A stretch of DNA of 64,000 nucleotides, from NCBI GenBank assembly GCA_001247695.2, contig LGRX02025816.1:1-64000 (forward strand), read 5' to 3'. Every line of letters begins with the position of its first letter. Within the stretch, counting starts at the first letter, position 1. The notes under the pieces are model-generated. The model saw only the letters and a list, made by a program, of their open reading frames with translations, ran no database searches and was not told the DNA's origin. The translations under genes were made by a program, and so were the position numbers. This DNA is from Cymbomonas tetramitiformis (Eukaryota; Chlorophyta; Pyramimonadophyceae; Pyramimonadales; Pyramimonadaceae). Below, piece by piece: positions 1 to 59,532 of the stretch.

Positions 1-70
1 GCGGAATCATGCGTGTGAATACAGGTATCCGCCTACATACGGTTTATTTACATATATATTACATCGTGTA

Positions 71-8389: not shown

Positions 8390-8399
8390 GCTAGAATAG

Positions 8400-9494
8400 C
8401 ACAATATTTTGTAAACATTTTGTATATACGTGTACCATTCGTGAATGTCCTGCAGTGTCCTGCTCTGTCGTGCTGACAAATCTTACGTCTTTCCATACGG
8501 TGTTCACACGTACGGACGTCTTGTTCATACGTGTGGATGGGATCGTCCATACGCATGGATAAGTATTATCACAAGCTATCCACACGTACGGACACCGATG
8601 TCCATACGCGTGGATATGTAAAATATACTAAGTAAATAAGTTTCCATCCGCACGGACAGCGACGTTCATCCGGATAAGGACGTCGTCCACACGTACGGAC
8701 GCACGTGTCCATACGTCTGGACTATCTATATTCGACTGTCCACTTGGTGTCCTTGCGGTATCCGCACGTGCGGTTACGATGTCCATGCGTCGTCCATACG
8801 CTTTCTTTATGGGCGTCCATATGCCCTCCGCACGCGCGTTTACGATGTCCATGCGTCGTCCATATGCTGTCCTTACGGTATTACATACGGTGTCCGCATG
8901 TGCGATTATGATGTCCATACGCTGTCCTTACGGCTATCCATACGTTGTCCGCACGTCTGGTTATGATGTCCATGCGACGTACATACGTTGTCCTTATGGG
9001 AGTCCATATGCCGTCCGCGCGCACGTTTACGATGTCCATACGCCGTCCATACGCCGTCCTTGCGGGATTATATACGGTGTCCGCACGTGCGATTACGATT
9101 TTCATGCGCTGTCCATACGATGTCCTTACGGTTGTCCATACGTTGTCCGCACGTCCGGTTACGGTGTCCATACGCTATCCATACGGGTTTCCATACGGTG
9201 TCCCTGCGCTGTCGTGCGGGTGATTAGTGCCTCTGTCCACGCGTATGGACACCATGTGGACATGTTTTCTGTCCATACGGTGTCCATATGGTGGTCCATA
9301 CGGTGTCCATATGAAATCCTTACGATGTCCATGGGACATTTTCATATGGACACCACAATTACGCGTCGTCCGTATGGTTCTTACATATTCATCAAGGTTT
9401 CGCCAGAAATCTGCTCAGACCGTCCATACGGTTGTCCATATGGGTCCTTACGATATCCATACGCTGTCCATATGCAAATCCACACGGATGAATG
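8400..9494. repeat. Right subterminal motif array of element 1, copy A
   Basis: About 1.1 kb of CGTATGGAC/GTCCATACG variants (CGTGTGGAC, CGCGTGGAC, CGTAAGGAC) spaced roughly every 15-30 bp in both orientations, ending at the TIR. EnSpm elements carry subterminal repeats bound by their own protein, and this array fits that role. Reading frames across it are by-products of the repeat. Confidence 0.85.
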
Positions 9495-9512
9495 GGCCAA
9501 TAATTTGTAGGG
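9495..9512 (-). repeat. Terminal inverted repeat, right end of copy A
   Basis: GGCCAATAATTTGTAGGG, the inverse of the left TIR of copy B. The next base starts a clean 305-bp satellite unit, so the boundary is exact. Confidence 0.93.
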
Positions 9513-11320
9513 AACACGAAGGTGCGAACCGGTTGGCACGGCATGCCCGTATCTCCATGAAAGATGTATGCCTGCACGCTCCGTCGGAAGTCGTTCCGAA
9601 GACGTCCCGAGCGTCTTCTGCGCATCTTCCGGGCTCATTTCGGTCAGGCTTATTCCCGGCGGATGCGTGTGACATGCTTGCGCAGGCGGATGAAAGGCCC
9701 CGTAGCACACCGCAACATGCCTCCCACGCCCGTCGAGTTGGCGGGTGAGACGCAAGAAGATGACGGGGCCGCCGTTGGTACCACGTCCAACCGTGACCCC
9801 CTCCCCCCGGAGAGGCCAACACGAAGGTGCGAACCGGTTGGCACGGCATGCCCGTATCTCCATGAAAGATGTATGCCTGCACGCTCCGTCGGAAGTCGTT
9901 CCGAAGACGTCCCGAGCGTCTTCTGCGCATCTTCCGGGCTCATTCCGGTCAAGCTTATTCCCGGCGGATCCGTGTGACATGCTTGCGCAGGCGGATGAAA
10001 GGCCCCGTAGCACACCGCAACATGCCTCCCACACCCGTCGAGTTGGCGGGTGAGACGCAAGAAGATGACGGGGCCGCCGTTGGTATCACGTCCAACCGTG
10101 ACCCCCTCCCCCCGGAGAGGCCAACACGAAGGTGCGAACCGGTTGGCACGGCATGCCCGTATCTCCATGAAAGATGTATGCCTGCACGCTCCGTCGGAAG
10201 TCGTTCCGAAGACGTCCCGAGCGTCTTCCGCGCATCTTCCGGACTCATTCCGGTCAAGCTTATTCCCGGCGGATGCGTGTGACATGCTTGCGCAGGCGGA
10301 TGAAAGGCCCCGTAGCACACCGCAACATGCCTCCCACACCCGTCGAGTTGGCGGGTGAGACGCAAGAAGATGACGGGGCCGCCGTTGGTACCACGTCCAA
10401 CCGTGACCCCCTCCCCCCGGAGAGGCCAACACGAAGGTGCGAACCGGTTGGCACGGCATGCCCGTATCTCCATGAAAGATGTATGCCTGCAAGCTCCGTC
10501 GGAAGTCGTTCCGAAGACGTCCCGAGCGTCTTCCGCGCATCTTCCGGGCTCATTCCGGTCAAGCTTGTTCCCGGCGGATGCGTGTGACATGCTTGCGCAG
10601 GCGGATGAAAGGCCCCGTAGCACACCGCAACATGCCTCCCACACCCGTCGGGTTGGCGGGTGAGACGCAAGAAGATGACGGGGCCGCCGTTGGTACCACG
10701 TCCAACCGTGACCCCCTCCCCCCGGAGAGGCCAACACGAAGGTGCGAACCGGTTGGCACGGCATGCCCGTATCTCCATGAAAGATGTATGCCCGCACGCT
10801 CCGTCGGAAGTCGTTCCGAAGACGTCCCGAGCGTCTTCTGCGCATCTTCCGGGCTCATTCCGGTCAAGCTTATTCCCGGCGGATGCGTGTGACATGCTTG
10901 CGCAGGCGGATGAAAGGCCCCGCAGCACACCGCAACATGCCTCCCACGCCCGTCGAGTTGGCGGGTGAGACGCAAGAAGATGACGGGGCCGCCGTTGGTA
11001 TCACGTCCAACCGTGACCCCCTCCCCCCGGAGAGGCCAACACGAAGGTGCGAATCGGTTGGCACGGCATGCCCGTATCTCCATGAAAGATGTATGCCTGC
11101 ACGCTCCGTCGGAAGTCGTTCCGAAGACGTCCCGAGCGTCTTCTGCGCATCTTCCGGGCTCATTCCGGTCAAGCTTATTCCCGGCGGATCCGTGTGACAT
11201 GCTTGCACAGGCGGATGAAAGGCCCCGTAGCACACCGCAACATGCCTCCCACGCCCGTCGAGTTGGCGGGTGAGACGCAAGAAGATGACGGGGCCGCCGT
11301 TGGTACCACGTCCAACCGCG
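9513..11320 (+). repeat. 305-bp tandem array, six units, 5' of element 2 transposase
   Basis: Units start at 9513, 9818, 10123, 10428, 10733 and 11038, each 305 bp and differing by only a few bases; the last is slightly short. Every unit contains element-2 motif variants (GAAGACGT, CGTCTTC, CATCTTCCGG). The array ends about 10 bp before the transposase ATG, so it occupies the promoter/5' leader position. Open frames of 102, 137 and 296 codons recur at the 305-bp period and are not considered genes. Confidence 0.93.
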
Positions 11321-15564: not shown

Positions 15565-16109
15565 TAATACGCCGGGCATCGTACTTAGTGGTCTGTATGT
15601 TGAATAGATGCAATCGTACATGTATGTGTAGATAGACCTATCAATTAACTTAGCCGTATATCATGTATCATAGCAACAGAGCATGATGACAACCCTGAAG
15701 TTGTTAGGAAGATACCCGGAATGTCTTCCGTATGTCTTCCGTGCGCCTTCTGAATGTCTTCTGTGATTACGCGACTAGTGTACGTGTGGTATGAAGTAGC
15801 TATGTGGCCAAATTGCATAATCATCACATATGTGTCGATAACACATGTCAGAATGTATTCTGGCACAGAAGACATTCGGAACATCTTCCGGGTATCTTCC
15901 GGGAAGACTGCCCTTTGCATGTCTTCCGGGAAGATGTCTTCCGAAATCCGGAAGACATTCCGCACATCTTCGGCACGTCTTCCCCGAAGAGTGTCTTCTG
16001 GTTTCCAGAAGACGTTCCACTCAGAAGACGTATTCTGGAAACCAGAAGACGTCATTTCTACGAAGACGTCTATAAGACGTTCAGAAGACGTCTTCTAGAC
16101 GTCTTCTGA
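15565..16109. repeat. Right subterminal region of element 2
   Basis: After the stop codon comes about 130 bp without repeats. From about 15710 there is a dense array of GTCTTCC, GGAAGAC and CAGAAGACGTCTTCTG palindromes running to the TIR. These are the same words found in the transposase introns and in the 305-bp units. Confidence 0.85.
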
Positions 16110-18828: not shown

Positions 18829-19089
18829 ATACCTCGGTAATTTTTAGGGATTTTTCCAACCATTAGGGTGCGTGTTATTGAATATTTTGCTCGAATTTTG
18901 GGTCGGAAAATGTCACAATTCAGCATTTTCGTCTTAGTGGTGGTGTTTACCATGCGCTGAGAGCATAATATATCGTCATTATAAGCCATTTACGGTTTCC
19001 TTATGAACCTTTAAATTGGGTCATAAACTTGATGTGTGGGTGGTGGTACACCACCCCCTATCCATCTAATGGGCCATTATTGACGATAC
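18829..19089. other. AT-rich spacer without recognised feature
   Basis: No gene or known repeat seen. It contains GGTGGTACACCACC (19044-19057), a short palindrome, and a TTTTTAGGGATTTTT tract next to the element 3 end. Confidence 0.5.
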
Positions 19090-19325
19090 CGCGGCTAGTC
19101 CTTCCTGAAGGACTAGTGAAATTAATTAAATTTACAACAAAATATACCCTAAAACTGCGGCTCGATTAGGCGTACCATATTATGGAAATACGTGTTCCTA
19201 TTATGATAGGCACCTTGCCCGGGTCCCAAATGATTTTCCCAAGCACAGGGCTGAGGTCTAGGGCCCAATATTCAAGGAGTTATGTGCATTTCCGCCTAGT
19301 CCTTTGGGAAGGACTAAAATGTCGG
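19090..19325. repeat. Palindrome-bearing short element, variant 4 (CTAGTCCTT type), fragment
   Basis: Two palindromic words, CTAGTCCTTCCTGAAGGACT plus AG near 19095 and CTAGTCCTTTGGGAAGGACT near 19297, bracket AT-rich DNA. GACGATACC beside the first resembles the GACGATGCC beside the left palindromes of the copy at 31098-31747. I read it as a truncated member of the same palindrome family with its own palindrome sequence. It cuts the C-terminal side of the adjacent gag fragment. Confidence 0.5.
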
Positions 19326-19656
19326 GTACTAGCCACAGAAGGCCATTCACCCGGCTCACAACCGGGGTAAGGGGGTCGTCGAGATCAAAGGACTTCAGCT
19401 CCAGCCCAGCTGACTCGAACTCCGTACGTAGCTGCACCACCAGGTCGGACAGAAGGCCAGCGTCGTCCGTACCGCGGAAATGGTGTTTCTTGTCACCAAG
19501 AACGTCCTCGCGGACGCTCTTGGCCCAGGCACGATGAAGACGTGCCTTGTAGATCTCGTCGGTCAGCTTCGCCTGCTCCTGCAAGTAACGCCTGATGGCC
19601 ACGTCGGCGTCCTCGTTCGAAGCAGGGTTGGGGGTCGGAACAGTCGGTGTCCGCAC
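19326..19656 (-). pseudogene. Gag fragment (DIRS/gag-only element type)
   Basis: The minus-strand peptide (about 110 codons) aligns by eye with the early part of the two larger gag proteins at 28888-31778 and 59987-62383. It shares the order VLG-K--HF-G, a Leu-rich LV--L---F stretch, then PV----NGLL. It has no ATG start: the frame opens with GTG and upstream coding-like sequence is in another frame. It is truncated at the palindrome element. It is a relic of a third copy of the gag-bearing retroelement family. Confidence 0.5.
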
Positions 19657-21630: not shown

Positions 21631-23290
21631 CTAGTAGCCTAGTGCTCTAGTCACCGAGAGGCGGGTCTCCGTCGGATCCAGAATGTAGCGGTGAGCGCTG
21701 GAAGCCGTGTGCCAAGCACCATGCTGCTGAAAGAGCCTGAAGCTGACCTTGCGGGCTGCAACTGTGGCCCCACCAGATCTGAGTGACTGAGTCCCCCACT
21801 TTTTCTGGACCTCTGCCTCTGACATCCTTGTGGTCCTATGCAGGAACTTATGCACCTCTCTGCGGCACTGAGGGTACTCCATATGTCTGCCATTCAATTG
21901 GGACTCATGCGGGCGGAACCTGGCTGCTCTGCCATCCCAACCCTGAAACAGGTTAATGGCTATTACCCTTCGGGTGGCTTAAGCCACCCTAACAGCGATT
22001 TAGGGTGGCTTAAGCCACCTTAACGTTTTCAATTATTACGGGAGCTATCGGTACCGGAAGCTAGATTTTTTTAGCTCAAAATGACGGCGACATTGTCTTC
22101 TTTTAGACACTATGTGCACTATTAGGCGAGCCCAAGTTCCCGGTGAGCAATTTTGGGAAGTATCCAAGAGGGTGCAACATTTAGTAAAATTTGAGCGATT
22201 TTCCCGGTTTTTGCATACCCATGCTACTTCAACCGAGATTTTGAGGGTCAAGATGACCTCGGATCAAACTTTTGGCAAGACACTGCAGAAAGAGCAGCTC
22301 GAGATCTTGACAACATGGGTCTCCAAATTTTGAAAGCGTCTTAGAGGAAGCCCCCGGTGAGCTAATTAGCTTAAGGTGGCTTAAGCCATCTTAAGGAAAA
22401 TTGGGAAATACCCACCCTACTTCAACCGAGATTTTGAGGGTCAAGATGAACTCAGATCAAACTTTTGATAAGACACTGCAGAAAGAGCAGCTCAAGATCT
22501 TGACGACATAGGTCTCCAAATTTTGAAAGCACCGCCGAAGAAGCCCCCACGAGCCCTTTAAGTTAAGGTGGCTTAAGCCACCTTAAGCTGCGGGTAATAG
22601 GCATTAACCAACCCTGACAGGCGCGCCCGGGAAATCAAGGCCTCACACAAGGCAACTGGGCAGGTGTCCCGGCGGGTGCCTCTGGCAATGTAGACTACGC
22701 CACCCTCGCTCCCTGAACTGGTCATTCTTCCTCTCTGTCAGGAGGGCCTCCATGTGTGTGGGGAAGAAGTTAACAAGCTCCACCCAAACAAACTTCATGT
22801 CCTTATACCTAAGGAACCCGGTCCACATGGTGCCAACCATGGCACCTACCACCAAGTGGATCAGTGGGCAAGTCTCCAAGTCTGGCACATACAGTAAAAT
22901 CCCGGTCTGTAGAATGTCCAAATCTAGCGGGTCCTTCTTATTCTGAAGCTTAAGTCATATGCGCCTCTTGGCTGCCTGCCTGACCCCTTTAACTAGCGGG
23001 TGCTTCGTCGGGGCATCCTCCTCTGTAACCAAGGCAATCTGATGGAGGGCATAAATGGCTCCTGATGCTGACTTAACCTCCACTGCATATGACTTAGCCT
23101 CACAGGCTATGAGCTGAAGGAAGAGGCTCATTGTAAGTGGAGTAGCCGGTACTGGTACTCTCGGGGGTACCCGTGCCGCACAGAAGGCGGTGTACCTGCG
23201 GATAATACCACTGCAGCTGCTGACCCAAGTGGTGGGGGCACGGGTAGCCACCATACCTGCCTTCATAGACTGAAGGAGGCTCTGCTCCAA
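21631..23290 (-). pseudogene. DIRS tyrosine recombinase, broken
   Basis: Recombinase used for integration of a circular cDNA. The N-terminal core-binding part is at 23290-22955 (Trp and Cys/Ala-rich helices), a middle part at 22921-22611 (ALLTERKNDQFRE) and the C-terminal catalytic part at 21897-21631. The catalytic part shows SLRSGGAT (box II Arg; the usual His-x-x-Arg His is Gln here), a HGAWH stretch and the candidate nucleophile Tyr in HRYI. The parts are in different frames, with stops, and a 659-bp palindrome element lies between middle and C-terminal parts. It is not functional. Confidence 0.75.
21951..22609. mobile_element. Palindrome-bearing short element, variant 1 (GGTGGCTTAAGCCACC type)
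   Basis: 659-bp insertion in the recombinase gene. Ends are GGTTAATGGCTATTACCC and GGGTAATAGGCATTAACC, an imperfect TIR. The host word AACCCTGA(A)CAGG is present on both sides, suggesting a duplication of about 8-10 bp. Four palindromes occur: 21972-21989 and 22004-22019 at the left, 22373-22392 after the core, and 22563-22586 (24 bp, perfect) at the right. The core around 22230-22330 (TTTTGAGGGTCAAGATGA and AAAGAGCAGCTC) is shared with the elements at 27571 and 31098, and part of it is duplicated at 22430-22530. No gene. Confidence 0.8.
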
Positions 23291-23356
23291 AGGATCACGG
23301 GGGCTTACTTGGAGCTGTCTCCAAAGCAGTGAGTCCAGAGCCCCGCCTGTTCCCCA

Positions 23357-25281
23357 TCAACAAGAGCCGTCGATCCTCAGAGCCAACACCCGGAAGGCAG
23401 GGGGGCCAACGGCCACCTCATTGGCTCGGCCTGCCCCCGGCTTAAACACTGGCTCAATGGAGTCTCTGGGGAGCTCCACCCAGTCAACCACAAAGGAGGC
23501 AAAGTGGACACCGTCAGGGCACAACAGAGGCCACCAGTGCCGGCCGGTCCACCAGGGGCATATGATTGTAGCCCGTGCTCCGTGCTGGATCAGGCACCTC
23601 AACAGCTGCCCCACAAGCCCGAACGGGGGATTACACCAATTGTTCTCCTGGTACCAGTCTGTGGAAGCAAAGCAATCGACACCTTCGCAGCCGGGGCACC
23701 ACCACCTGCTGATAAACCGAGGCAGCAAGTGGTTCCTGTCTGTCGCAAAACGGTCAACCGTGTGCTCACCCCACATCCCATCTAGCCATCTGAACCAATA
23801 CTCTGACAACATCCAATCATCTGAGTCATAGATACCAGCCAGGAAGTCTGCATACTCATTCAAGTCTCTGGGGATCCAAGTGACCTGAAGCTTCACCTTA
23901 TGAGCAATACACCACCAGAAGATCTCAACTGACAATCTGTGCAACTGAGACTTGGCACTACAACCTTTGCAGAGGATTCTCCAAGCTGCCTGAGAGTCTG
24001 TGTGCAGCTGAACTGCTGTGCCGTGAATGAAGTGCGCCAAAGACTGCAGAGTACGGAGGATCCCGATAAGTTCCCGAAAGGTGGAAGACTCATCCCGTTC
24101 ACTTAAGGACAGGTGTCCTCTAGCATCCTGCCGCTCTCGGGCACCGCTACTGCAAGCCAACCTCCCCAGCCGGTGCCTCCCGCATCTGTCCAAATAAGAT
24201 TAACAAAAATAGCTGAGACAACGGCCCAAATTGGGGAAGTAAATTCCTCCGAGTGGAGGCTCAACCAGAATCGGAGCTCCGTCATTACTTCCGCTGTCAC
24301 CGTGACATACTGGTCCCACCTGTAAGCAGCTTCAATCACAAAGTACATTTCTCGGGTAAACATAAAAGCCACTTTACCAAGAGCGGCTCGCAAAGACATT
24401 GCCTTCCCCGCAATCGAGGCAAGGCCGCGGGCTGTAATCCTGCGCCTACTCAGTGCGTCGGAAACCTTCTTCTGAAAGGAATCCCACTTCTGTTGCGGTG
24501 CATAGAACACTCCTTCAAGGGAGTCAATACCCATCCCAAGGAAAGGCAATCTCTGAACAGGTGTAAAGATTGACTTCTCGAGATTCACCAGGAAACCCGA
24601 AGCATCCAAGTCTGCCAAAATCTCTGCTTGCTGAATCAAGAAAGCTGCTAGGGCTGTGCTCGCTGCCAATCCAAAGAAAAGAAAATCATCTAAATAATGA
24701 ATAAGTCTGGCGCCTCTCTCCCTCCAATGGCGAGCGAGCTCTCGAGTGATACGAGTGAAGACATATGGGGCAATCGACAATCCGAAAGGTAGCACAACGT
24801 ACTGGAAAAATCTGTCCTGCCACTCGAAAGCTACATAAGCCTGAGAATCAGGGTGAAGCTCGACGTGGTGATAGCCCGACGTGAGGTCGAAGCTCCACAT
24901 ATAGCCCTCAGGATCGAGTAGGTCGCGTACCATCATTAGTCCCTCGTACTTGAACTTTCTCACAGCTAGATAGCTGTTAACGAAGCGGCCATTCCATATG
25001 AGCCGCTTTTTAGGCGGTTCACCAGGGCCCATGTCCCTGTAAGCAACACTGAGAGGGGACACTACAATCGGCCGATCGAACACCTCATACGCGGCGCCCG
25101 AAGCGAGAAGGTTGTCAACAGCTTCAGTCACAAACTCGCTCTCCTTAAGAGCCAAGTCGGAATTCGCGAACCACCTCGCTGGTGGGGGCTCACCCGCCCA
25201 AGGCAAGGAACCACCAAACGTGATCCACACGAGCACGACTGCATTGCAAAACGTGCACCAAAAAGGCAATCTCGCTCTCAA
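23357..25281 (-). pseudogene. DIRS reverse transcriptase-RNase H, frameshifted
   Basis: The reverse transcriptase covers 25281 to about 24200: KKRLIWNGR fingers, the FDLTSGYHH block, VLPFGLSIAP, and the catalytic YLDD box in IHYLDDF. RNase H follows (IWTDAGGTG with the first Asp; TFRELIG with the Glu; HTDSQAAW; NEYADFLAG) and then the DIRS-typical segment with FATDRNH and NPPFG. One frameshift between about 24110 and 24190 separates the first RNase H Asp from the rest, so no single protein is made. The start of the RT part is upstream of 25281 in sequence that changes frame. Confidence 0.85.
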
Positions 25282-25585
25282 TCTTCCCCTTGGGGCAGGA
25301 GTCTTCGCTGCTCCTTCCTCGAATTCGCTTCGATCGCACTCGTCTGCGCTAACCGCACCATCCTCTTCGTGAAGAAGGAAACGAAAGGCATTAAGCCAAT
25401 AGCACAGAGTGCCTCGCCAACGCGGAATCGGCCGAAACCGCAGCTCAAACGAGCGAAGCGCATTACGAACACACCCCTAACTAAGTACGCCATTAACAAA
25501 GCAAGGAAACATGAATAAGTGTTTCATCGGACAATAACTTTCTCATATAAAAATGATAATACATACAACAGTAACACGAGTTTCT

Positions 25586-26737
25586 AATTACCAGAGGCAC
25601 CAAAGGGGCACTGATTCTGCATATGGCCAGAACGACCACACGTAAAGCAAACAGGAGGAGTGCCCTTCCCTCCTTTCCCTTTGCCCCCTTTGGGACCAAA
25701 GTCATTCCTAGGGGGCTGGAACTGAGGCTGATAATACGGTTGAGGCCTCTAACCGCCTCCGTCGCGTGACTTCCAGCCATTCCGGGCTTTCTTACTGTCT
25801 GCCAAAGCTGCAGCTTCTTCGCTCGCGGCCTTCCTAGCCTTTTTATACTTTTTCTCGGCCTCCTCAGAATTCGTAACAGGCTCATCAGCAAATTTCTTCG
25901 CTACATTCCAACCGTCTTTGAAAGCAATATGGGCGATTTGAGCTTTCTCTTCGCAGAGCTTCATACCTTCTTCCAGAGTCGCTTCGGCCTTCTTAACACC
26001 TTAAGGGCGAATTGCCATACTGCTCATACTGATCCTGTTTTCCAGGAACTTATTTTCACGTTTTCGGCAATAACTCAAGTTCTAGACATCCATTTGCCAC
26101 GATTCTTCGCATACCTTATATTATGGAACTAGGTGGATGATATGGCACCTCGTTATCCCTCACATCGTTTGTGCACACATGCATATTTGTGACCCACCAT
26201 CACCATACTTAAGGAAATTCTATTGAAAAGCTGTTGTGGGCATTTTTGGGCATGCGCCATGAACATCCCACCACTATTGACGTGATGTTATAAGTGGGCG
26301 ATGACGTATCATGGTGTATATCAATGGGGAAAAAATGCCATATCCTTAATTTGAAGCCTTTAGAGTGCTCTCCATAGAGCACGCTTTTGTCACCTGCAAG
26401 CAAGACACCCCTGCACTTTCCACAAAGTCCCCCACTCGATATACCGAGTTTGGTGGGCATTGAAGGGTTGCGGGACCTCGCCCAAGTCCCCAATATGGAC
26501 ACCAATACTTCATATATCTTCAATAGTTGACTACCGTGGCAGTTATGGATGTTTTCGCGCTCATACTGATCCCATACTGCTAAAAACGAATTCGCCCTTA
26601 GGTCCGCTTCGATCTCCTCCGCGAGCGGTGCCGGCACGTCGCTCTAGCTGCCTTCGACAGCTCCACCGTTCCCTTGTGGAAGATCTTGTCGGCCGCGTTC
26701 GCAAAATCCCACGTGCGCTTGGCTGCCGTTCTTGTCC
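25586..26737 (-). pseudogene. DIRS gag C-terminal part, interrupted
   Basis: The last exon-like stretch carries a CCHC zinc knuckle (CFTCGRSGHMQNQC) near the C-terminus, after a Gly/Lys-rich segment, with stop at 25586. An in-frame TAG lies near 25751. Upstream is a Lys/Glu/Ala-rich coiled region. Gag-like frame resumes at 26601-26737, after a 594-bp insertion, and ends where a TTAA-flanked element begins. Too broken to encode protein. Confidence 0.65.
26004..26597. mobile_element. Harbinger-like MITE with TTA flanks
   Basis: Non-coding 594-bp insertion in the gag relic. TTA lies on both sides (26001-26003 and 26598-26600), and the ends read AGGGCGAATT and AATTCGCCC. TTA/TWA duplications and GGGC-type ends are typical of PIF/Harbinger elements; the short TIR and absence of a gene fit a MITE. 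Inner flanks also share CATACTGCT and CATACTGATC in inverse order. Confidence 0.6.
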
Positions 26738-26741
26738 TTAA

Positions 26742-27570
26742 CCCCTATGGAGCGGTTTGTACCGTATACGAACACGTTGACCGCTCATATCATAGTACAT
26801 TCACAGCTCGAACTGACAAGACTCGTTGCAATCGCACATCCACGCTTCGCACGCCCATCGCGATAGGTATCATTAATGCTCAAGAATGTATTTTGCACAT
26901 ATTCCTATTATATATACCTTACGCACGGGGCATTTCGTTGTGAGCGAATCCCCAAAGTTGCTCGAGTCATGGGATGTAATATGTGTAAAATCTATCCTAA
27001 AGTGTGAGAAATCGCGGTGTTGGTGGCATACATCGACATGGGTATGCCGGTTCAATGGTTTGTATCATATCATATCACCATGCACTTCATACGGGCCATA
27101 TATACGTTCCCGATATTCATTTATTGCTAAAAACACTCCATTTACGCCTTAAGTATGGAAAACATTGTAAAATTAATGTTTTTTTCTTGTTTTTTGGTGT
27201 TTTTTTCGCCTACTTGCTTGAATATTTCGATATATCGACGCGTTTGGCCAAAAAGATCATTACCTATTCAAAAACATGAATAAAGGAGATTGTTTTATGG
27301 TCGTGGGATGACTTATTACTCGATTATGCGGTTGCGAGAACTCAAATTTTACAAATTTGGTTCCTGGAACGGCATGATTTTTTCTTGTATATTGTCGATA
27401 TGTCGTTGTATATATCATGTGCGCATGCATGCAATAGCTCAACATGACCGTCTATGGGTTGTGGAACATATGTCGAATCTCGTGCACCTAACATGATACC
27501 ATGTACCACGAACACAGTGCATTTGTAAAATACATGTTTTTCGCAAAAGGTTCCATCCGCTCCATAGGGG
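26742..27570. mobile_element. piggyBac-like MITE with TTAA target duplication
   Basis: 829 bp, AT-rich, non-coding. The 14-bp TIR CCCCTATGGAGCGG is perfect at both ends and is flanked by TTAA at 26738-26741 and 27571-27574. TTAA duplication with a CCC start is the hallmark of piggyBac. The right TTAA is also the first bases of the palindrome element that follows, so it inserted exactly into that element's end. Confidence 0.8.
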
Positions 27571-28440
27571 TTAATGGCTACTACCCGATGGTCCTTACGG
27601 TAGGACCTAGAACGCTCTAGGTCCTACCATAAGGACCACTTTTTCAATAATTTTTTGAGGTGCCCTATTGGTATCGTGAATGGCTACCCTTCGGTTGATG
27701 GCATATTTAGGACTTGAACTCAGTCCCCGCTTTCCCACTTGCCGAGTTTTAACCCAAGCGGGATGCTACACTACCCGTATTAGGCACGGGTAGCGTAAAA
27801 AATCGTCGAGAACTTTTCTAAAGCCAAAAATCTCTTAAAATAATAGCACATCTTTCATAATTTTTCGCCGACAGACTATGGAGGCTGAGCATGCGTCCAA
27901 TGATCCAGTAGCACCGTAGCATTATATACAACCATGTTTAGAATAGAGCACAAGTCGATAACCTCATAGCGGACATTTAGCTGCACCCCAATCAACCTGT
28001 CCCATCATTTTTAGTCAAATGTCATAAAATTTAAGGGCCAATTTTGGCTTTGGTCTGAAGTCGGGGATGCTATATTGAATGCGCACATGCCGCTTACACA
28101 CTATTACCTCGCTATTGTCGCCATATAGACACAACAATTGAATTTTCGAGCCATCTACATAGGCAGAATGTGCGATATTTTGGCGTGTAATCATCGTTGA
28201 TCCGGACGAAGGGCATTATTATTTTGGGCGATTTAGTGCCTTTTCCAGCTTTGACAGCCAATGCTGCTTCAACCACTATTTTGAGGGCCAAGATGAACTC
28301 GGATGGAATTTTTGACAATACACTACGGAAAGAGCAGCTCGAGAACTTGACGACGCAGGTCTCGAAATTTTCGTAGGACCTATTGTGAAGCGGATAGCCG
28401 GGCTTAAATGTAGGTCCTTATGGTAGGACCTAGCTTTTTT
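27571..28440. mobile_element. Palindrome-bearing short element, variant 2 (GGTCCTTACGGTAGGACC type)
   Basis: Starts TTAATGGCTACTACCC, nearly the same end as variant 1. A long inverted repeat with 23-bp arms and one mismatch spans 27589-27638. A related near-palindrome is at 28411-28432. The family core is at 28265-28370 (TTTTGAGGGCCAAGATGA, AAAGAGCAGCTCGAGAA). The right TIR is not seen, so this copy is probably truncated. No gene. Confidence 0.7.
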
Positions 28441-28459
28441 TGCTGAAATTTGAAAAAAA

Positions 28460-28582
28460 CTGCGAGAACAGGGGTTCCGCTCGGTGAAAACAAACTGGCT
28501 AAGCTCCATAAACAGTCCGGCCGAGTGCTTTTATCATGCATCTCGGAAACCCGGATAATACGAAATAATGACTGACAGTACG
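28460..28582 (-). repeat. 123-bp terminal repeat shared by G1 and G2
   Basis: Base-for-base the same as 59533-59655 as far as I can read. It starts CTGCGAGAACAGGGG and ends CTGACAGTACG. The adjacent sequences differ, so it marks the common 3' end of the two gag-only elements. Confidence 0.85.
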
Positions 28583-28887
28583 GTACTACTGTACTGTCAT
28601 CCTAGCTACTAGCGGAGTCACGGTTCCGATCAGAGACAGGTCAGGCTAGGGGCTATCAGAGCCCATAATAATAACCCTGAACCTAAAGTCCAGCACACCA
28701 CCCGGAGCTGTGACCGTAGCTAACATGGCTAGGCAAGCGGAGCAAACTAAACAGATAACAAACAGCTACTTCATTGGAAACAGATATACTTCTAGCTGGG
28801 TGCCCGGGGACTTGTCCCGGGCTCCCGGCACAACCCACTGCTGCGGCTAAGGCTAATCACACCTCCAGGATCTGAAACAAGCAGACT

Positions 28888-31778
28888 CTAGCCACTGCAA
28901 AGCTGGTCGGCAGAGCCGAGTTCAGCAGACGGATCCCAAGGCAGGAAAACATCCGAAGTAAGTTGAGATGAGAATTGGTAAGCACTGACACCACCAGACC
29001 CAAGCGGGTCAGGCGGATCCCAGAGGGGAACGGTAGAATCACCAGATTGCAAAGCCGCCGAGGTCGATTGAGAAAAGAACTGTGTCACATCCCGCGGCGG
29101 CAATAACGAACCAGCAGTAACCACAGGCGGGTAAAGAGAATCCAGCACCGCATCACCGGGATGAACTGCACCGTAGTCGTAAGTGGCTCCGGGCTCAACC
29201 AGGCCCCTGACACCACCGCCGACCACGAGGGTCGGCATCGCCGTAGCACTGAACAGAAACGTAGCCACCATAAAAAGAGTGAGGGCAAATTCACCAATGC
29301 CAAATGGCCTGGAGCCTCTGGGGACTCCGAACCGCCGAAATGCTGCAGCCGCCGGCGGTGCACCCCCCTCAATTTCAGTCAGGCAGACACCAGGAGGGTA
29401 GTTGGAGCCCTCCCCATCATCATCGGAATCACACACCTCAACAGGCTCAGGCTCAACGTCAAGCCAGTCAGGGTGGATAGCGTTAAAAGTCTTGAAAGAA
29501 TTGTCAGCAGGAGTCATTGGGCCGAGAGCAGCCAGAGAGGCAGACGGCGGCACAAAGGTGGCACGGTTGACTCCATGCAAGTCAACCGGCTCATCATGCA
29601 CAGGTGCAGAGGCCCGCAGCAGCAGCTGCTTGCCAGTGGTCGGCTCAGCGACACCACCAGCAAGCGGACCGCTGACCGCAGAAAATGCAACACGGCCAAT
29701 AGAGAGATGCTCAACAGGTGCAGACTCAGCAGAGGCAGCAGCATCCTTGAACTGCTGCAGAGCCGTAGGCTCTGCAGCAAAGGAATATGCAGATAGCTCG
29801 CAGATTTCAGGTTGCCCCACGAGAGCACACAAGTGCTCCATGGACCCTGCATCTCCAGCGTCATAGTACCGCTGAAAACGAAGGGCAAGCACGTCGGAGT
29901 CATAAGACTCGACGGCTTGGCAGTAGGATGCCGAAATGGACAACGGGTGAGTGTCCTTGTGAGGACACTCACTGAGCCAATGCTTTGACCCAACGGCGCG
30001 GCACTTTTCGTGCCTGCACGTTGGGACAAAGGTGCCAGACCGCTTGTCAAAAGCCACCTCCGAAGAGGCGGAATGAGCAAGCGGCTGCACTCCAGGTCGG
30101 TGGAAGTTGCGCGGAGTGTGTTTCCCAGGAGGCGGCTTGGGGCCACCCCTCTTAAGGGAATCCACATCCCGCTGCAACTTGACCAACTGAGCACTGAGCC
30201 GATCAATGGCCGAAGCCAGGCCAGTGTCAGTGGTGCAAGATGCTACAGACATGGGGCGCCCTGCAGTGCGCTTGCCCGAGAGCCGCCCGCAGCGGTACTG
30301 CTCGCGCACGCGTGCCTGCAGGGTGAGCAGACTTACAGCCGCACGCTGGTCAGCTCGAGCAAACGAGTCAACCAGCGTGGCGTAAGCCGGCCCAGACAGA
30401 GCAGAGAGGAATTGTCTCTTAACAGCGTCTTCGGGCAGCGTCTGCAGACGCTGTGCATCCCGAAGACAACTGTTAAAAAGACGAATGCCAGAGTCAGGGT
30501 CATGCTCATCCGAGATTCCCACCTCAAGCAGCTCAGCAAAAGACTCGAATGGAGTCGAATCATCAGCAAGCATACGCACCACCTCGAGGGTGGCACGTTT
30601 GCCATCAGCAGGAACATCGGCTCCAGAAGCCTCCACCCAATTACGGGCAGGAGACCCTGGCGCAGTCAGCAGCAACAGCACAGAGTACAGGAGCTCATTG
30701 GCAGCAGGCATGACAGGGACATCAGCAGCAGTCAGCTCAAACAGGGGTGCAAATGCCTGTGACTGCAGCGTGAAGAGCTGCTGAATTTCGGAGACCAGCT
30801 GTGAAAAAATGTCCGAAGCCGACGATTCACTGCCATGAAATTTTGTCGTCTTGCCTCCCAAAACCTTAGTTGCTGCTGTCTTTGCGCACTGCATATCAAA
30901 GGAATCCTTGCGTAACCGTTGCACGAGTGTCGCAGCCGTAGCTGACTCGTCAGATGTAGCCAAATGCGGTGTTGTGGGGGTAGCCGAGTTTAACGCCCCA
31001 ACATCATCGAAAATAGTTGCTAATTTACGCGCCCTAGCGCGTGTGTCACAACTATGAGCACGCTTAGAAGGGGTCCCTCGGGCACCCCTGATGTCTGTTA
31101 CCCATCTGTTGGCTATAGCCAACATTAGGGCCCCTTATGTTGGCTGGAGCCAACATAAGCCTTGTTGACGATGCCGGGAGCTGTCGGTACCGGATTGTAC
31201 ATTTTATTAGCTCAAAATGACGGCGGGGATATTCTCTTTCACACATGCGTTAACAACATTGGGACGCTCGCAATCATCGGCGAGAATTTGGGTTACTATT
31301 CAAGAGAGTGTGAAAATTTGAGGAATTTCCAAGGAATTTTGGGTGTTTACATACCCATGCTACTTCGATCGATATTTTGAGGGTCAAGATGAACTCGGAT
31401 GAAAGTTTTGATAAGACACTCCAGAAAGAGCAGCTCGAGATCTTGACAACATGGGTGTTCAATCTTTCAACGCCCTTCTCATGCCGCTCACATTGTACAA
31501 TTTTCTTATGTTGGCTGCAGCCAACATACGGAGCATTTTGTATTTTAGCGATCATACCCCAATTCTAGGGCACAATTATGCAAGCCCCCATGGGTGTAAG
31601 AAGGTATACCACGTATTGACAATTTTTCAAAGGTCTAGTAGCCCTTCAAACAACATTGCTTTGGAGCAATATGTATCATTAACCATGAGTAATATGCTTC
31701 GGAACTTTGGGTTTTATGTTGGCTGCAGCCAACATAAAGATGGGTAAGAGACACTGAAAGGCCTGTCACACCCCCCAT
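28888..31778 (-). pseudogene. Gag-like protein of G1, split by an insertion
   Basis: The reading frame runs 31097-28888 (about 735 codons). The likely ATG is at 31778-31776, and the first ~11 codons are separated by the palindrome element at 31098-31747; an ATG inside that insert gives a false start at 31125. Features: helical N-terminal half; a zinc-knuckle-like C-x4-C-x7-H-x4-C (CRHEKCRAVGSKHWLSEC) near residue 385; an acidic Asp/Glu stretch; then a hydrophobic segment FALTLFMVATFLFSATAM about 120 residues from the C-terminus that could span a membrane. No protease, RT or integrase. Similar in layout to the 59987-62383 protein. Confidence 0.65.
31098..31747. mobile_element. Palindrome-bearing short element, variant 3 (TGTTGGCTGCAGCCAACA type)
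   Basis: 650-bp insertion at the very start of the G1 gag. The ends share TTACCCATCT as a short TIR. Four palindromes: 31107-31124, 31135-31158, 31507-31528 and 31713-31738 (26 bp, perfect). Their arrangement, two at the left, one after the core and one at the right, matches variant 1. The core 31360-31455 is closely similar to variant 1 (GAGGGTCAAGATGAACTCGG; AAAGAGCAGCTCGAGATC). No gene. Confidence 0.8.
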
Positions 31779-40421: not shown

Positions 40422-40442
40422 CCTCCCTACAAATTATTGGCC
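40422..40442 (+). repeat. Left target duplication (CCT) and TIR of copy B
   Basis: CCT at 40422-40424, then CCCTACAAATTATTGGCC at 40425-40442. The other CCT is at 51022-51024. Three-base duplications are typical of EnSpm/CACTA. An uninterrupted copy of the target, GGCGCTCCTGCTGCGG, survives at about 51142-51157 in the next protein repeat and confirms the empty site. Confidence 0.95.
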
Positions 40443-41540
40443 CATTCATCCGTGTGGATTTGCATATGGACAGCGTATGGATATCGTAAGGACCCATATG
40501 GACAACCGTATGGACGGTCTGAGCAGATTTCTGGCGAAACCTTGATGAATATGTAAGAACCATACGGACGACGCGTAATTGTGGTGTCCATATGAAAATG
40601 TCCCATGGACATCGTAAGGATTTCATATGGACACCGTATGGACCACCATATGGACACCGTATGGACAGAAAACATGTCCACATGGTGTCCATACGCGTGG
40701 ACAGAGGCACTAATCACCCGCACGACAGCGCAGGGACACCGTATGGAAACCCGTATGGATAGCGTATGGACACCGTAACCGGACGTGCGGACAACGTATG
40801 GACAACCGTAAGGACATCGTATGGACAGCGCATGAAAATCGTAATCGCACGTGCGGACACCGTATATAATCCCGCAAGGACGGCGTATGGACGGCGTATG
40901 GACATCGTAAACGTGCGCGCGGACGGCATATGGACTCCCATAAGGACAACGTATGTACGTCGCATGGACATCATAACCAGACGTGCGGACAACGTATGGA
41001 TAGCCGTAAGGACAGCGTATGGACATCATAATCGCACATGCGGACACCGTATGTAATACCGTAAGGACAGCATATGGACGACGCATGGACATCGTAAACG
41101 CGCGTGCGGAGGGCATATGGACGCCCATAAAGAAAGCGTATGGACGACGCATGGACATCGTAACCGCACGTGCGGATACCGCAAGGACACCAAGTGGACA
41201 GTCGAATATAGATAGTCCAGACGTATGGACACGTGCGTCCGTACGTGTGGACGACGTCCTTATCCGGATGAACGTCGCTGTCCGTGCGGATGGAAACTTA
41301 TTTACTTAGTATATTTTACATATCCACGCGTATGGACATCGGTGTCCGTACGTGTGGATAGCTTGTGATAATACTTATCCATGCGTATGGACGATCCCAT
41401 CCACACGTATGAACAAGACGTCCGTACGTGTGAACACCGTATGGAAAGACGTAAGATTTGTCAGCACGACAGAGCAGGACACTGCAGGACATTCACGAAT
41501 GGTACACGTATATACAAAATGTTTACAAAATATTGTGCTA
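40443..41540. repeat. Left subterminal motif array of copy B
   Basis: Same array as 8400-9494 in reverse: dozens of CGTATGGAC, CGTAAGGAC and CGTGCGGAC words. Probable binding sites for an element protein. Confidence 0.85.
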
Positions 41541-41547
41541 TTCTAGC

Positions 41548-43828
41548 CTAGCTTCTCGGCTTCTTTCCTGGCCTCTGGTCTTCTTTGGCAGGTGCAAGTG
41601 CATTCTTTTTCTTTTTAAATCTAAGAGGTGACTTTTTGGCAGCCTCGTTCTTGGAACCGCCCCCCTCCTTCTTCTCCTCCTCCTCCTCCTCCTCCTCCTT
41701 CTTCTCCTCCTCGGACGCCTCCTCATCGTCCACAGCCTCTCCTTCCTCTTCTTCATTAGCAGCGACAGCCTCATCCTCGACAGCCTCAACAACCGTCCCA
41801 TCATCATCATCATCTCATCATCGTCCGCGTTACCCTTTTCCTCCTCAACATCCGCATCGTGCATCTCTTCCTTCTGACACCCCCGCACGTCCTGAAACCA
41901 GTGACGGCTCGTTCCTCTCGTATGACACTGCAAGTGAATGCAACCTAAGTAAGTGCATTAAGAGCAAAGACAACAAATGACAAGCTAAATGCAACTAGAA
42001 CAATACAAGCAAACACACCGTGACGGGGGGATATCCACGGTCCCGTTCCGATACCTCAGCAGGCTCCAACTTCAGGCCGGCCAGTTTTCTCCCTGTCATC
42101 CTCTCGGGATACAGCTTGTCCGTGTTGGCGTGCCTCAAGTAGGCCTTGTGTATCCTGCGTACATAAACCACTTGTTAGACGGCGTCCTTACATATGTACA
42201 CCGCCTTCCACCCGTATGGACGGCACAATAAATGGTGTCCACGCGTATGGACAGCGAAACAACACCACGCACACATGTACACATGGACGTTCGCGTAAGT
42301 GCAAAAGGTAAAAATGTGAACGTTGCAGGGGAAGGCAGGGAGGGAGGGAGGACTTGCCAGATAACATTTTTTCTTACTATAACTGACTGGAGGTTGTGCT
42401 CCAGCATCTCCATCGTTTTATTAGCCGTCCCGGTGCGGAGTTGCTCGGCACTCACGAGCTCATCCACCATGGACATGTGGTGGGATAACATCCTCTCCAC
42501 GGGGTAAACGTCCCCCTTCTCTGGGAGGTGCACCACAAACTCCACGTACAGCTCGTAGGTATCCCTGGGCAAAAGCATCGGCTTCTCGTTTAAGGATTTC
42601 CCCGGCCCGATGGCGGCGACGGTTGCCCGACCGATGACGAGGTTGGAAAGGCCAGTTTTGGTGGCCTTGCCGGTGTCGTAACCGTCACCGATACGACCCA
42701 CGTCCGCCTGGGGGGTGGCAAACACGTCAACCTGGTCCCCGACAGCCAAAGGGCCCTCCAGGTTGGGGGAGTGCTCGTCTGCCTGCGGCGCCGACCCTTC
42801 GGAGACCGTCTGTTGGGGCGCTTCCACCTGGACACCGTGGGGACGACGTATGGACTAAGTCGTTCGTACGGGCGACACACGCGTGGAAACATATAAGAAA
42901 AACAGTTAAGAACTGGCGCTCACTAGCCAAAACGTACACCCCTGTGGACAACGTGCAAACTACGTGGTTCATAAGCGTGGAAACAATCAAGCGGCACAAG
43001 TTGAAAAAGGGTTCACATAACCACGCGCCTGGACACCGTTGGACAGCGAGTGGACACCGCAGTTTACAGGCGGAAGAGCACAAAAGTTACCTTCGGTTTC
43101 TTTTCAGGGGCTTCAGGGGCTTGGGCACCAAGCGCTTTGAAGATCTCAAAGTGCTTGCCTTCGGTGAGTGGGTTCCCAGCAGCCACTGCCAGAGCCACCT
43201 GCAGGCACGCATCTGTCTCCTCCGGGGTCGGCATATCCCTGTGCCCGTACACCTTGTACCCGGCCGCTGGACCCTTGTACCGGATGTGAAACCCGTCGGG
43301 GAAGTCCTGGGTGACCTTAAATTTCCAGCGACCGGGCCCATCCGAGTTATTTTTTAAATAACTCAACCGGTTGGTGACGTATGTTTTGACCATGCGCAGG
43401 GGCACCTGCGGGTGTCGGGACTGGATATGCTTGGATATCTTGTTGTGCACGGCCACCCCGATGACGGCGACCGTCCCAGGGGGCAGCTTGCCTGTTCCAT
43501 GCCAGTCGTCGATTATCTCCCGGGCGTCTTCCTTCATGTCGTTTAAAACTTGGGCGCCCGGGTCCAACACCAACCGCTCTGTATTTGCGGCCTGCGCAGC
43601 CTCTGCAGGTTTGGCTGCACCCCCCGCCCCGGCAGCCCCTGCAAACATCAGCATTTGCTGCTGCATGCTCTGCATTTGCTGCATCATTTGCTGCATCGCG
43701 GAGTTTGACCCGGTCGCCTCGACCAAGTTGGTTTGGCGACGGGTCGGTGTCGTGGAAGTGGGGGCGGGGGGTGGTGATTTTGGTTTCTGTGTGCGTTGTC
43801 TTCCGGGCTGAACTCGCAATCTGGTCAT
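41548..43828 (-). pseudogene. Second gene of element 1, copy B, frameshifted in last exon
   Basis: Same gene as 6111-8389. Exons about 43828-43091, 42827-42388, 42154-42019, 41927-41548. In the last exon, near 41801-41824, the GAT repeat is net 2 bp longer than in copy A (one G lost, one ATG gained). The acidic and basic C-terminal tail is thereby read in the wrong frame. The first three exons are otherwise almost identical to copy A (one Gly/Trp change and a few others). Copy A is presumably the ancestral frame, because it keeps one open frame with a proper stop. Confidence 0.75.
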
Positions 43829-44092
43829 GTTGGGAACTTACGAAACAAAAAAGCGAGGAGGTTCGTTTGCTGGAGGACTGTGGGCGTTTGTATTTGGCTT
43901 ACTTTTGGCATTAATATTTGGCATGAAATGGCATGAAAACGGTCTTCACGGGCGTGGACAGCGCTGCCTTCGTGGCGTTCATCCGTACAGTACGGGCGTC
44001 CGAACGTATGACCGTTGAGCTGGTGTATGAGACAGCGTCGTCCATGGGCGATTTTGAACATGCATGTCTCAATTTCTTTTTTCTTTTTCAAA

Positions 44093-44104
44093 TTGGTATC
44101 AGAG
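44093..44104 (+). other. Primer-binding-site-like 12-mer
   Basis: TTGGTATCAGAG matches the initiator-Met tRNA primer site common in plant LTR retrotransposons. No LTR is visible around it. It may be a relic or coincidence. It is conserved in copy A (5849-5860). Confidence 0.35.
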
Positions 44105-44170
44105 TCCTCTCTGTAGGGAAACGCGGTTTTATGAATATAAGTTTTGCCGTGCAGCGGGTTTCCATCATCG

Positions 44171-44253
44171 TGGGTGCTTGGCCGAGTGGTCAAATGTTGG
44201 TAAGCCGAACGCGTTACACGCGAGGGTGAGGGGTTCGAATCCCCTTGGAGGCA
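44171..44253 (+). other. Degenerate tRNA-like sequence (copy B)
   Basis: A box TGGCCGAGTGG at 44179-44189 and B box GGTTCGAATCC at 44232-44242, 53 bp apart from start to start. T arm intact, acceptor arm unpaired. Directly followed by the 17-bp inverted repeat. It could be a SINE head or a pol III promoter inside the element. Confidence 0.6.
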
Positions 44254-49882: not shown

Positions 49883-49946
49883 TACACGATGTAATATATA
49901 TGTAAATAAACCGTATGTAGGCGGATACCTGTATTCACACGCATGA

Positions 49947-59123: not shown

Positions 59124-59532
59124 TCAATGAATTTTTAGGGAACTTTAGGAATTTTTAGTGTTTTTTAGTCAGAATCCTTGTTCAAGTGTAATCTAGTAGA
59201 TGCAGCGGCCAATTCCTGCAGAAGTCTCAGCAATAAAAATAACATCAAACAGGTCGTGAGCCGATTGGCTAAAAGTGGTTGCGACCCACAATACGCGGAA
59301 TGCCCTCTCCACCGGCCAGGTGAAACGTAAAAATAAGCCATAGCGAGCGACGATACTGCTGCCGAAAAATGCTCGAAAACTGATCTCCACTTCAAAAAGA
59401 GGCCATACCGCGAAAAGAAAACCACCGCCTAAGGGGGCGCCCACCCCATCTCTGTGTCAAAACTTAGCCAATCATGGCAACAGCTAGGCGCTGTGCCATC
59501 AGAATTACCGGGAAAGTGGTGACGCGCATAAC
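59124..59532. other. Spacer before G2
   Basis: TTTTTAGGG-rich for the first 50 bp, then unremarkable. Minus-strand open frames of 83-86 codons show no family resemblance. Confidence 0.4.

What the first reader, a model, noticed from the sequence alone, without database searches (positions are those of the whole stretch)
21951..31747. A short-element family that swaps its palindromes while keeping core and layout
Elements at 21951-22609, 27571-28440 and 31098-31747 share a conserved core (GAGGGTCAAGATGA...AAAGAGCAGCTCGAGA). Two of them share the same layout: two palindromes at the left, one after the core, one at the right. Yet the palindromes are unrelated in sequence: GGTGGCTTAAGCCACC, GGTCCTTACGGTAGGACC and TGTTGGCTGCAGCCAACA. 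Within a copy all palindromes agree. A probable fourth type (CTAGTCCTT) is at 19090-19325. All sites in a copy appear to have been rewritten together, as if to follow a changed binding protein or escape a silencer. I know of no described mechanism for this.
Basis: seen in the sequence. Interest (0 to 1): 0.9.

Follow-up and report, generated by a model that had tools for sequence, protein, structure and literature searches.

The report
Jumping-DNA families with matched end signposts
In the genome of a green alga, several families of small jumping DNA elements keep four protein-docking-like palindromes at almost fixed positions, but each family has its own version of the palindrome, which looks like co-evolution with a family-specific transposition protein that was not found.

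Summary
The finding is real, larger than described, and in one point mis-stated. The window lies in an 851.7-Mb genome, very probably Cymbomonas tetramitiformis. The three core-bearing elements belong to a clan of non-coding DNA transposons: inverted termini mostly TGNCTNNTACCC, exact 4-bp target duplications in 53 of 60 terminus-bounded pairs, 562 exact core matches genome-wide. Seven palindrome families (A-G) were read. In 66 delimited copies of A-E, 233 of 233 scored palindromes fit their copy's type best. Arm hybrids are rare genome-wide (6 of 1112 C/D-frame sites; 0 B-E/G hybrids beside 211 and 944 pure sites). Positions are rigid: first centre 24 bp from the left tip in 67 of 68 copies, left pair 30-31 bp apart. 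Arms vary 4.6-fold less than the rest, pooled over four types. Palindromes of the two complete window elements are related, by three mirror-symmetric changes per half. Best reading: docking sites of a family-specific, probably dimeric, transposition protein, co-diversified with it. Analogues in print: Hermes end palindromes, VANDAL/VANC motifs. No autonomous partner was found; the binder is inferred.

The parts
21957..22603 (+). E1, complete type-A element, 647 bp, termini TGGCTATTACCC / GGGTAATAGGCA
   Evidence: TSD TTAA on both sides
21953..21956 (.). left target-site duplication TTAA of E1
22604..22607 (.). right target-site duplication TTAA of E1
21973..21988 (.). E1 palindrome P1 GGTGGCTTAAGCCACC
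22004..22019 (.). E1 palindrome P2
22218..22331 (+). conserved core, first copy in E1
22375..22390 (.). E1 palindrome P3 (one arm base changed)
22417..22524 (+). conserved core, second copy in E1 (tandem duplication of core and palindrome)
22567..22582 (.). E1 palindrome P4
27575..28459 (+). E2, type-B element, 98% identical to positions 1-891 of the 1086-bp copy in L032; fourth palindrome and right terminus missing
27588..27609 (.). E2 palindrome P1 ATGGTCCT-TACGGT-AGGACCTA
27618..27639 (.). E2 palindrome P2 (opposite orientation of the spacer)
28258..28371 (+). conserved core in E2
28411..28432 (.). E2 palindrome P3 TAGGTCCT-TATGGT-AGGACCTA
31092..31753 (+). E3, complete type-C element, 662 bp, termini TGTCTGTTACCC / GGGTAAGAGACA
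   Evidence: TSD CTGA on both sides
31088..31091 (.). left target-site duplication CTGA of E3
31754..31757 (.). right target-site duplication CTGA of E3
31107..31124 (.). E3 palindrome P1 TGTTGGCTATAGCCAACA
31134..31159 (.). E3 palindrome P2
31354..31450 (+). conserved core in E3 (stretch matching E2)
31507..31528 (.). E3 palindrome P3
31713..31738 (.). E3 palindrome P4
18829..19335 (+). E4, right part of a type-F element (full copies about 1.06 kb); left part missing here; right terminus GGGTACTAGCCA; no core
19095..19116 (.). E4 palindrome P3 CTAGTCCT-TCCTGA-AGGACTAG
19296..19317 (.). E4 palindrome P4, 201 bp from P3

Best explanation
The elements are non-coding (non-autonomous) DNA transposons of one clan. 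The TG..CA termini are the cleavage ends; insertion duplicates 4 bp of target, with a preference for C-YTAR-G (shown). The subterminal palindromes, two close together at the left end and two about 200 bp apart at the right end (the third degenerate in type D), are most likely binding sites of a family-specific dimeric DNA-binding protein that assembles the two ends for transposition: either the DNA-binding domain of the transposase or an accessory protein encoded with it (inferred). Each family (A-G and further site variants) answers to its own version of that protein. When specificity drifts in an autonomous lineage, only copies whose sites match keep amplifying, so the half-sites end up with the same symmetric changes while spacing and termini stay fixed (inferred from the pattern). 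The short families probably descend by internal deletion from autonomous parents that had already diverged, so no special rewriting process is needed. The shared core is a separate conserved module of unknown role, present in A-D and not detected in the E-G copies read.
For: Type purity: 233 of 233 scored sites in 66 copies of families A-E fit their copy's type best. Rarity of hybrids: 6 of 1112 C/D-frame sites are hybrid, about the number of other single transversions at that base (5); 0 B-E/G arm hybrids beside 211 pure B and 944 pure E/G-type sites. Rigid geometry: first-palindrome centre at 24 bp in 67 of 68 copies, last at 28-29 bp in the 67 of 68 copies where it was found, P1-P2 30-31 bp in all 67 with a left pair. 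In family G, the 11 complete four-site sets that I counted by eye among the 100 listed of 701 places have pattern starts 30 and 200-201 bp apart and orientation + - + +. Arms are constrained: 13 of 2344 arm cells differ from the type majority against 638 of 25203 elsewhere, odds ratio 0.21 (46 of the 54 A-D copies, chosen by length). In C and D the 2-bp centre differs between sites of one copy (C: AT or GC at P1, GG or GA at P2, GC at P3 and P4; D: GG at P1, GC at P2 and P4). Transposition: 4-bp TSDs and near-identical copies with different flanks. Precedent: Hermes transposase BED domains bind a palindrome at bp 11-27 of the left end cooperatively, and a 1-bp shift from the terminus impairs cleavage (PMC10368747, passages).
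Against: No autonomous partner and no binding protein was identified. The 3555-bp F copy carries an unrelated insert, and the longest complete G set (about 3.4 kb) appears to. Geometry and purity inside a family are partly common descent, so the number of independent cases is small: A/C/D are homologous, E/G/B are partly homologous, F aligns with E over only 21 bp. Symmetry of single sites is far from perfect: 37 of 51 sites in A, 52 of 59 in C, 27 of 42 in D, but only 10 of 45 in B and 10 of 36 in E over the full 8-bp arm (31 of 45 and 33 of 36 over the inner 6 bp). D's third site is degenerate. In A the centre is TA at all sites, which does not discriminate against conversion. Two of 59 C sites have one D-like arm. 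Spacing exceptions exist: one B copy has P3-P4 359 bp, one C copy lost its left pair, and incomplete G sets show 32 and 205-206 bp. The arm constraint is not significant for B (1906 of 5000 random placements did as well). The core's conservation is not explained by this model.
Confidence: 0.6

Rival explanations
1. The palindromes are targets of a transposon-encoded anti-silencing protein (VANC-like) that keeps its own family active; sites shift with that protein.
For: VANC proteins of related VANDAL families bind different short motifs, and the motif sets differ between closely related copies (PMC5735166, sections read). Family-specific purity here is the same kind of pattern.
Against: [quoted passage not shown] here there are four single sites with nearly fixed distances to the termini, which suits end recognition better. 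No VANC-like gene was searched for.
Confidence: 0.15
2. The palindromes are structural: hairpins or cruciforms in DNA or RNA, kept by compensatory change.
For: Symmetric (mirror) changes in both arms are what pairing would demand.
Against: Pairing requires each palindrome to match itself, not all four to match each other; many sites in B and E are not fully self-complementary; group-II sites keep a non-palindromic 6-bp spacer, alike with small changes at the sites of the B, E and G copies read and in a constant orientation in the complete G sets, which looks like sequence reading.
Confidence: 0.08
3. Sites within a copy are homogenised by gene conversion or template switching, without a binder.
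For: Sites of one copy are alike and unlike those of other families; type A has the same TA centre at all sites, B, E and G nearly the same spacer at all sites; tandem duplication has happened in type A.
Against: In C and D the 2-bp centres of P1, P2 and P3/P4 differ from each other and keep their identity by position across copies, so whole palindromes are not copied over each other; arms are under constraint.
Confidence: 0.07
4. The elements are solo LTRs of retrotransposons: TG..CA ends and 4-bp duplications.
For: TG..CA termini and 4-bp TSDs are also features of LTRs; a few contigs hold several same-strand sets (C53).
Against: 12-bp inverted termini with palindromes at similar distances from both tips; in the listed G and C/D sites most contigs hold a single set (by eye). 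Most loci were only about 2-3 kb long, so paired copies were not excluded rigorously.
Confidence: 0.05
5. Sites were changed to escape a sequence-specific host silencer.
Against: Escape needs loss of a motif, not its replacement by a new constrained palindrome at the same place.
Confidence: 0.04

Closest known systems
Hermes (hAT) transposon ends: subterminal palindrome bound by transposase BED domains (PMC10368747, passages read)
   Same: A quasi-palindrome close to the terminus, further sites arranged differently at the two ends, strict spacing to the terminal inverted repeat
   Different: Hermes is a hAT element (8-bp duplications, recalled); its sites are short half-site repeats, and between-family switching of all sites was not the subject of the passages read
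VANDAL transposons and VANC proteins of Arabidopsis (PMC5735166, several sections read; follow-up PMC10398659 seen in search listing only)
   Same: Motif sets repeated within an element and differing as a set between related families, in step with a transposon-encoded binding protein
   Different: VANDAL motifs often lie in tandem repeats and change in number; here four fixed single palindromes; the protein is known there, unknown here
Tn7-like transposons and CASTs with asymmetric ends (PMC13370975, abstract read)
   Same: Asymmetric left and right ends recognised by the transposase
   Different: Bacterial; the TnsB sites are not palindromic (recalled)
IS481EU and Ginger1/Ginger2 DNA transposons (PMC10045372, PMC2836005, passages read)
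   Same: TG..CA ends and 4-bp duplications occur in these superfamilies
   Different: Ginger1 targets CCGG/CCGT and Ginger2 RTATAY, with TIRs of 40-270 and about 50-180 bp; here the TIR is about 12 bp and the target C-YTAR-G; no transposase is available to assign the clan

Membership tests
Non-autonomous DNA transposon (MITE-like) | terminal inverted repeats and target-site duplications of constant length | tested here: met
   53 of 60 TIR-bounded pairs have an exact 4-bp TSD; 13 further loci had no pair of intact termini; 12 of 12 type-E copies with both ends
Non-autonomous DNA transposon (MITE-like) | no transposase gene in the element, many near-identical copies | tested here: met
   typical lengths 0.65-1.1 kb; mean within-type identity 0.93-0.98 for A-E; 562 core matches
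Ginger1 | CCGG or CCGT/ACGG target, TIR 40-270 bp, TGTNR termini | tested here: not met
   target C-YTAR-G, 12-bp TIR, TGGCT or TGTCT termini against PMC2836005 (passages)
Ginger2 | RTATAY target, TIR about 50-180 bp, TGTNR termini | tested here: not met
   against PMC2836005 (passages)
IS481EU | DDD/E transposase related to IS481; TSDs of about 4, 15 or 25 bp | not testable with these tools
   no transposase found; only 4-bp TSDs were looked for
IS481EU | TNT..AYA termini | tested here: inconclusive
   met by types C and D (TGT..ACA), not by A, B, E, F, G (TGG..GCA or TGG..CCA)
piggyBac | TTAA-specific insertion, CC..GG ends | tested here: not met
   E1's TTAA is one of many 4-bp targets; ends are TG..CA
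hAT (Hermes-like) | 8-bp target duplications (recalled) | tested here: not met
   4-bp duplications
VANDAL/VANC | encodes VANC; motifs in tandem repeats | tested here: inconclusive
   motifs are not tandem; no autonomous element to test for VANC
Solo LTR | full-length partners with two copies flanking an internal retroelement | not tested
   most loci are about 2-3 kb, too short

The most novel reading that the evidence does not exclude
One genome holds at least seven (by site variants about ten) parallel transposon families with the same rigid four-site end geometry but mutually exclusive palindromic 'addresses', so that families speciate by switching the address at all half-sites; type B, with ends related to G/E and a core related to A/C/D, suggests that internal modules can pass between address groups while the address set stays coherent. 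This would be a natural series of orthogonal end-recognition codes in a transposon superfamily not yet described.
Probability: 0.3. Interest if true: 0.75.

Novelty: new variant of a known kind. Interest (0 to 1): 0.57.

Why it matters
How a transposase changes its binding specificity when every site of every useful copy must change with it is an open question in transposon evolution. Here one genome offers seven families with near-identical site positions, different palindromes, in several cases hundreds of sites, and few intermediates, so the question becomes testable by finding the partner proteins. The sets could also serve as ready-made orthogonal transposon ends.

Tried and rejected
Autonomous partner: the 3555-bp F copy (C969, L101) was read. 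Its 2.5-kb insert has its own ends (CACCACTTTCTG / CAGAATCTAGTG) and lies in other sequence in C9960, so it is a separate nested element. Its two longest ORFs match no Pfam or PHROG family, and the 319-aa ORF has nothing significant in the PDB. The longest complete G set in the listed part (C1075, about 3.4 kb) has in its middle 1.8 kb of sequence without match to the other loci or the window, with a possible BED-type zinc finger (my reading of the letters; no Pfam match). Its ends were not read, so that it is a nested insert is inferred.

Core as RNA or protein: no Rfam hit in six loci. The RNA consensus fold has 1 of 25 pairs with double-sided change and a covariation term of +0.75, i.e. no support (six sequences, cut at unequal offsets, so the alignment ends are ragged). 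No third-position excess in the one mostly open frame (70, 109, 88 differences by codon position). Role of the core left open.

Collections: an exact core pattern found nothing in viral contigs or genome contigs. Literature: in the listings no title or abstract start describes these elements; most subscription journals are not held, and the passages of PMC10675990 give only repeat totals for Cymbomonas.
Full report
Where the window lies. The genome search places the window at bases 1-64000 of contig C16956 of an assembly of 851.7 Mb. The kinase ORF at 53996-55114 matches, at 94% identity over 71% of its length, a Cymbomonas tetramitiformis protein on a 110446-bp contig, the length of C16956. 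This is therefore very probably the green alga Cymbomonas. Pfam was run on 29 of the 149 window ORFs of at least 100 aa. It named tnp2/DUF4218 transposase parts, a reverse transcriptase, the kinase and an isochorismatase-like ORF; RVT_3, a CCCH zinc finger, a Kdo-kinase match and one DUF4218 match stayed below their cut-offs.

Checking the observation. Elements E1 (21957-22603) and E3 (31092-31753) are complete and bounded by inverted termini and exact 4-bp duplications, TTAA and CTGA. They align at 73% over 388 bp, with the first three palindromes at the same spacings. E2 (27575-28459) is 98% identical to the first 891 bp of a 1086-bp relative in L032 and lacks the right end. E4 (18829-19335) is the right part of a different family. 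The palindromes of E1 and E3 share 18 of 24 positions, and the six differences form three mirror pairs (my count); 'unrelated' applies only to E2 and E4 against E1 and E3.

The clan. A 33-place core pattern has 562 exact matches in the genome and none for its reversed control. From the 70 loci (20 chosen by identity to the E1 core, the first 30 listed by the core pattern, and 20 that I picked from the remaining listed places) 55 elements could be delimited, in 53 loci; 17 loci gave none. One of the 55 is a type-A element with a type-C element nested in it and was dropped from the counts. The types are A (like E1), B (like E2), C (like E3) and D (new). The terminus pattern TGGCTANTACCCGA gave 555 matches against 5 for its control and revealed three families in which no core was detected: E, F (like E4) and G. 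Of 16 type-E loci, 12 had both ends and were used; of F and G one copy each was read in full. The copies with both ends have TG..CA termini, mostly TGNCTNNTACCC (the right ends of E and G are a variant), and 4-bp duplications: 12 of 12 in E, and the single F and G copies. In an unbiased pairing of nearest termini around each core, 53 of 60 pairs have an exact 4-bp duplication; 13 loci had no pair. Of the 7 failures, 2 are artefacts of nesting or double reading (L004, L009). Target preference over 52 insertions is C (22 of 52), Y (39), T (29), A (32), R (38), G (24), that is C-YTAR-G.

Type purity. Each copy was typed by its first bases (12-20 letters) and its palindromes by arm models of types A-F, with up to 2 mismatches; worse sites were not scored. 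233 of 233 scored sites in 66 copies (A 13, B 12, C 15, D 14, E 12) fit their copy's type best. The scored sites are four per copy in 12 of 13 A, 9 of 12 B and 14 of 15 C copies, and three in the others; D's third site and one end site of E fall below the threshold. Sites need not be perfect: fully symmetric are 37 of 51 in A, 52 of 59 in C, 27 of 42 in D, 10 of 45 in B and 10 of 36 in E; over the inner 6 bp 31 of 45 in B and 33 of 36 in E. Several of these flaws are fixed in the family (A's third site, D's first). Two of 59 C sites have one D-like arm. Genome-wide, 1112 sites fit the shared C/D frame; 6 are C/D hybrids, and 23 carry A or T at that place, of which I count 18 transitions and 5 transversions. 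Hybrids are thus no commoner than random single mutations. For the other group, 211 sites have TA arms on both sides, 944 have CC/GG arms on both sides, and 0 have one of each; as such a hybrid needs two base changes, this zero is the weaker test. Four of the 50 listed TA sites carry the E spacer, and some CC/GG sites carry other spacers, so there are more variants than the seven families read.

Geometry. In A, B, C, D, E, F and G alike the centre of the first palindrome lies 24 bp from the left tip (67 of 68 copies), the last 28-29 bp from the right tip (the 67 where it was found), and the left pair is 30-31 bp apart (all 67 with a left pair). The right pair is 192 bp apart in A (12 copies), 207-213 in C (15), 200-206 in 11 of 12 B copies and 359 in the other, 201-202 in E (12), 201 in G and 205 in F; in D the third site is degenerate. 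The F values come from a copy read without its insert. In the listed part of the G search (100 of 701 places) I count by eye 11 complete four-site sets; all have pattern starts 30 and 200-201 bp apart and the same orientation order. Incomplete sets include spacings of 32 (C3295), 205 (C1768) and 206 bp (C1489). About 30-31 bp is three turns of DNA, so the left pair faces the same side (inference).

Relations between families. A, C and D align over the left half at 73-78%. G and E align, in opposite orientation, at 73% over 383 bp and 67% over 391 bp; B's left end aligns with E (68% over 151 bp) and with G (71% over up to 97 bp). B shares with A, C and D only the core (83-86%) and the termini. 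F aligns with E over 21 bp only, and no core was found in the five E, F and G loci searched for it. The arms of A, C and D are GGTGGCT, GTTGGCT and GTTGGGT with a 2-bp centre. The arms of B, E and G end in GGTCCT and of F in AGTCCT, with a 6-bp spacer. So the palindromes fall into two groups, related within and unlike between.

Constraint. Compared with the majority of their own type, in 46 of the 54 A-D copies (chosen by length), arms differ in 13 of 2344 cells and other sequence (core and termini left out) in 638 of 25203: 4.6-fold less, odds ratio 0.21, little changed without CpG. By random placement the effect is clear in C (0 of 5000), moderate in A (83) and D (124) and absent in B (1906). 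Cells are not independent events, so the Fisher value overstates. The centres are not homogenised in C (AT or GC at P1, GG or once GA at P2, GC at P3 and P4) and D (GG at P1, GC at P2 and P4); in A they are TA throughout. C and D argue for selection on half-sites and against copying of whole palindromes; A does not discriminate.

How it most likely works. Shown: transposition with 4-bp duplications, type purity, near-fixed geometry, constraint on arms (pooled). Inferred: a dimeric protein of the transposon binds the sites and brings the ends together; the family's sites follow that protein's specificity; the short families derive from autonomous parents by deletion. The closest worked example is Hermes, where two transposase BED domains bind a palindrome at bp 11-27 of the left end and a shift of one bp from the terminus impairs cleavage (PMC10368747, passages). 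For motif sets changing as a whole with a transposon protein, the example is VANC (PMC5735166, abstract and sections read), but there through tandem repeats, which are not seen here.

What is missing. No autonomous element was found. The superfamily is therefore not assigned: termini, target and duplication do not fit Ginger1, Ginger2 and piggyBac as described (PMC2836005 and PMC10045372, passages), and IS481EU could not be tested. Why the core is kept in A-D is open.

Verdict.

Noticed in passing
1-9532 and 40424-49952: Two copies of a 9.5-kb segment in opposite orientation, 99.5% identical, each with a tnp2-type (Transposase_21) ORF.
   Followed up: no
9513-11318: Tandem array of about 305-bp units, about 98% identical, beside the large repeat.
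   Followed up: no
15934-16109 and 62543-62914: Clusters of GTCTTCTGG/CCAGAAGAC palindromes; the first is downstream of tnp2/DUF4218 ORFs, and dense TTTCCATAGG motifs follow up to 18.8 kb. A second kind of repeated-motif stretch in the same window.
   Followed up: no
26742-27570: Possible 829-bp TTAA element with perfect 14-bp inverted ends CCCCTATGGAGCGG, flanked by TTAA on both sides; its right TTAA is also the left flank of E2 (read).
   Followed up: no
28457-28582 and 59530-59655: 99% identical 126-bp block, one copy beginning where E2's match to its relatives stops; may mark the element that truncated E2.
   Followed up: no
L101 760-3251: Nested element with ends CACCACTTTCTG / CAGAATCTAGTG and two ORFs; its 319-aa ORF has relatives elsewhere in the genome, some in open frames of about 950 codons.
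   Followed up: partly
G000:C53 25959-30027: Three right-end site pairs of type G in the same orientation about 1.92 kb apart, as if in tandem.
   Followed up: no
G000:C847, C2469, C2683, C3051: Palindromes with B-type arms and an E-type spacer (TAGGTCCT-TGTGGG-AGGACCTA): a further site variant, possibly between B and E.
   Followed up: no
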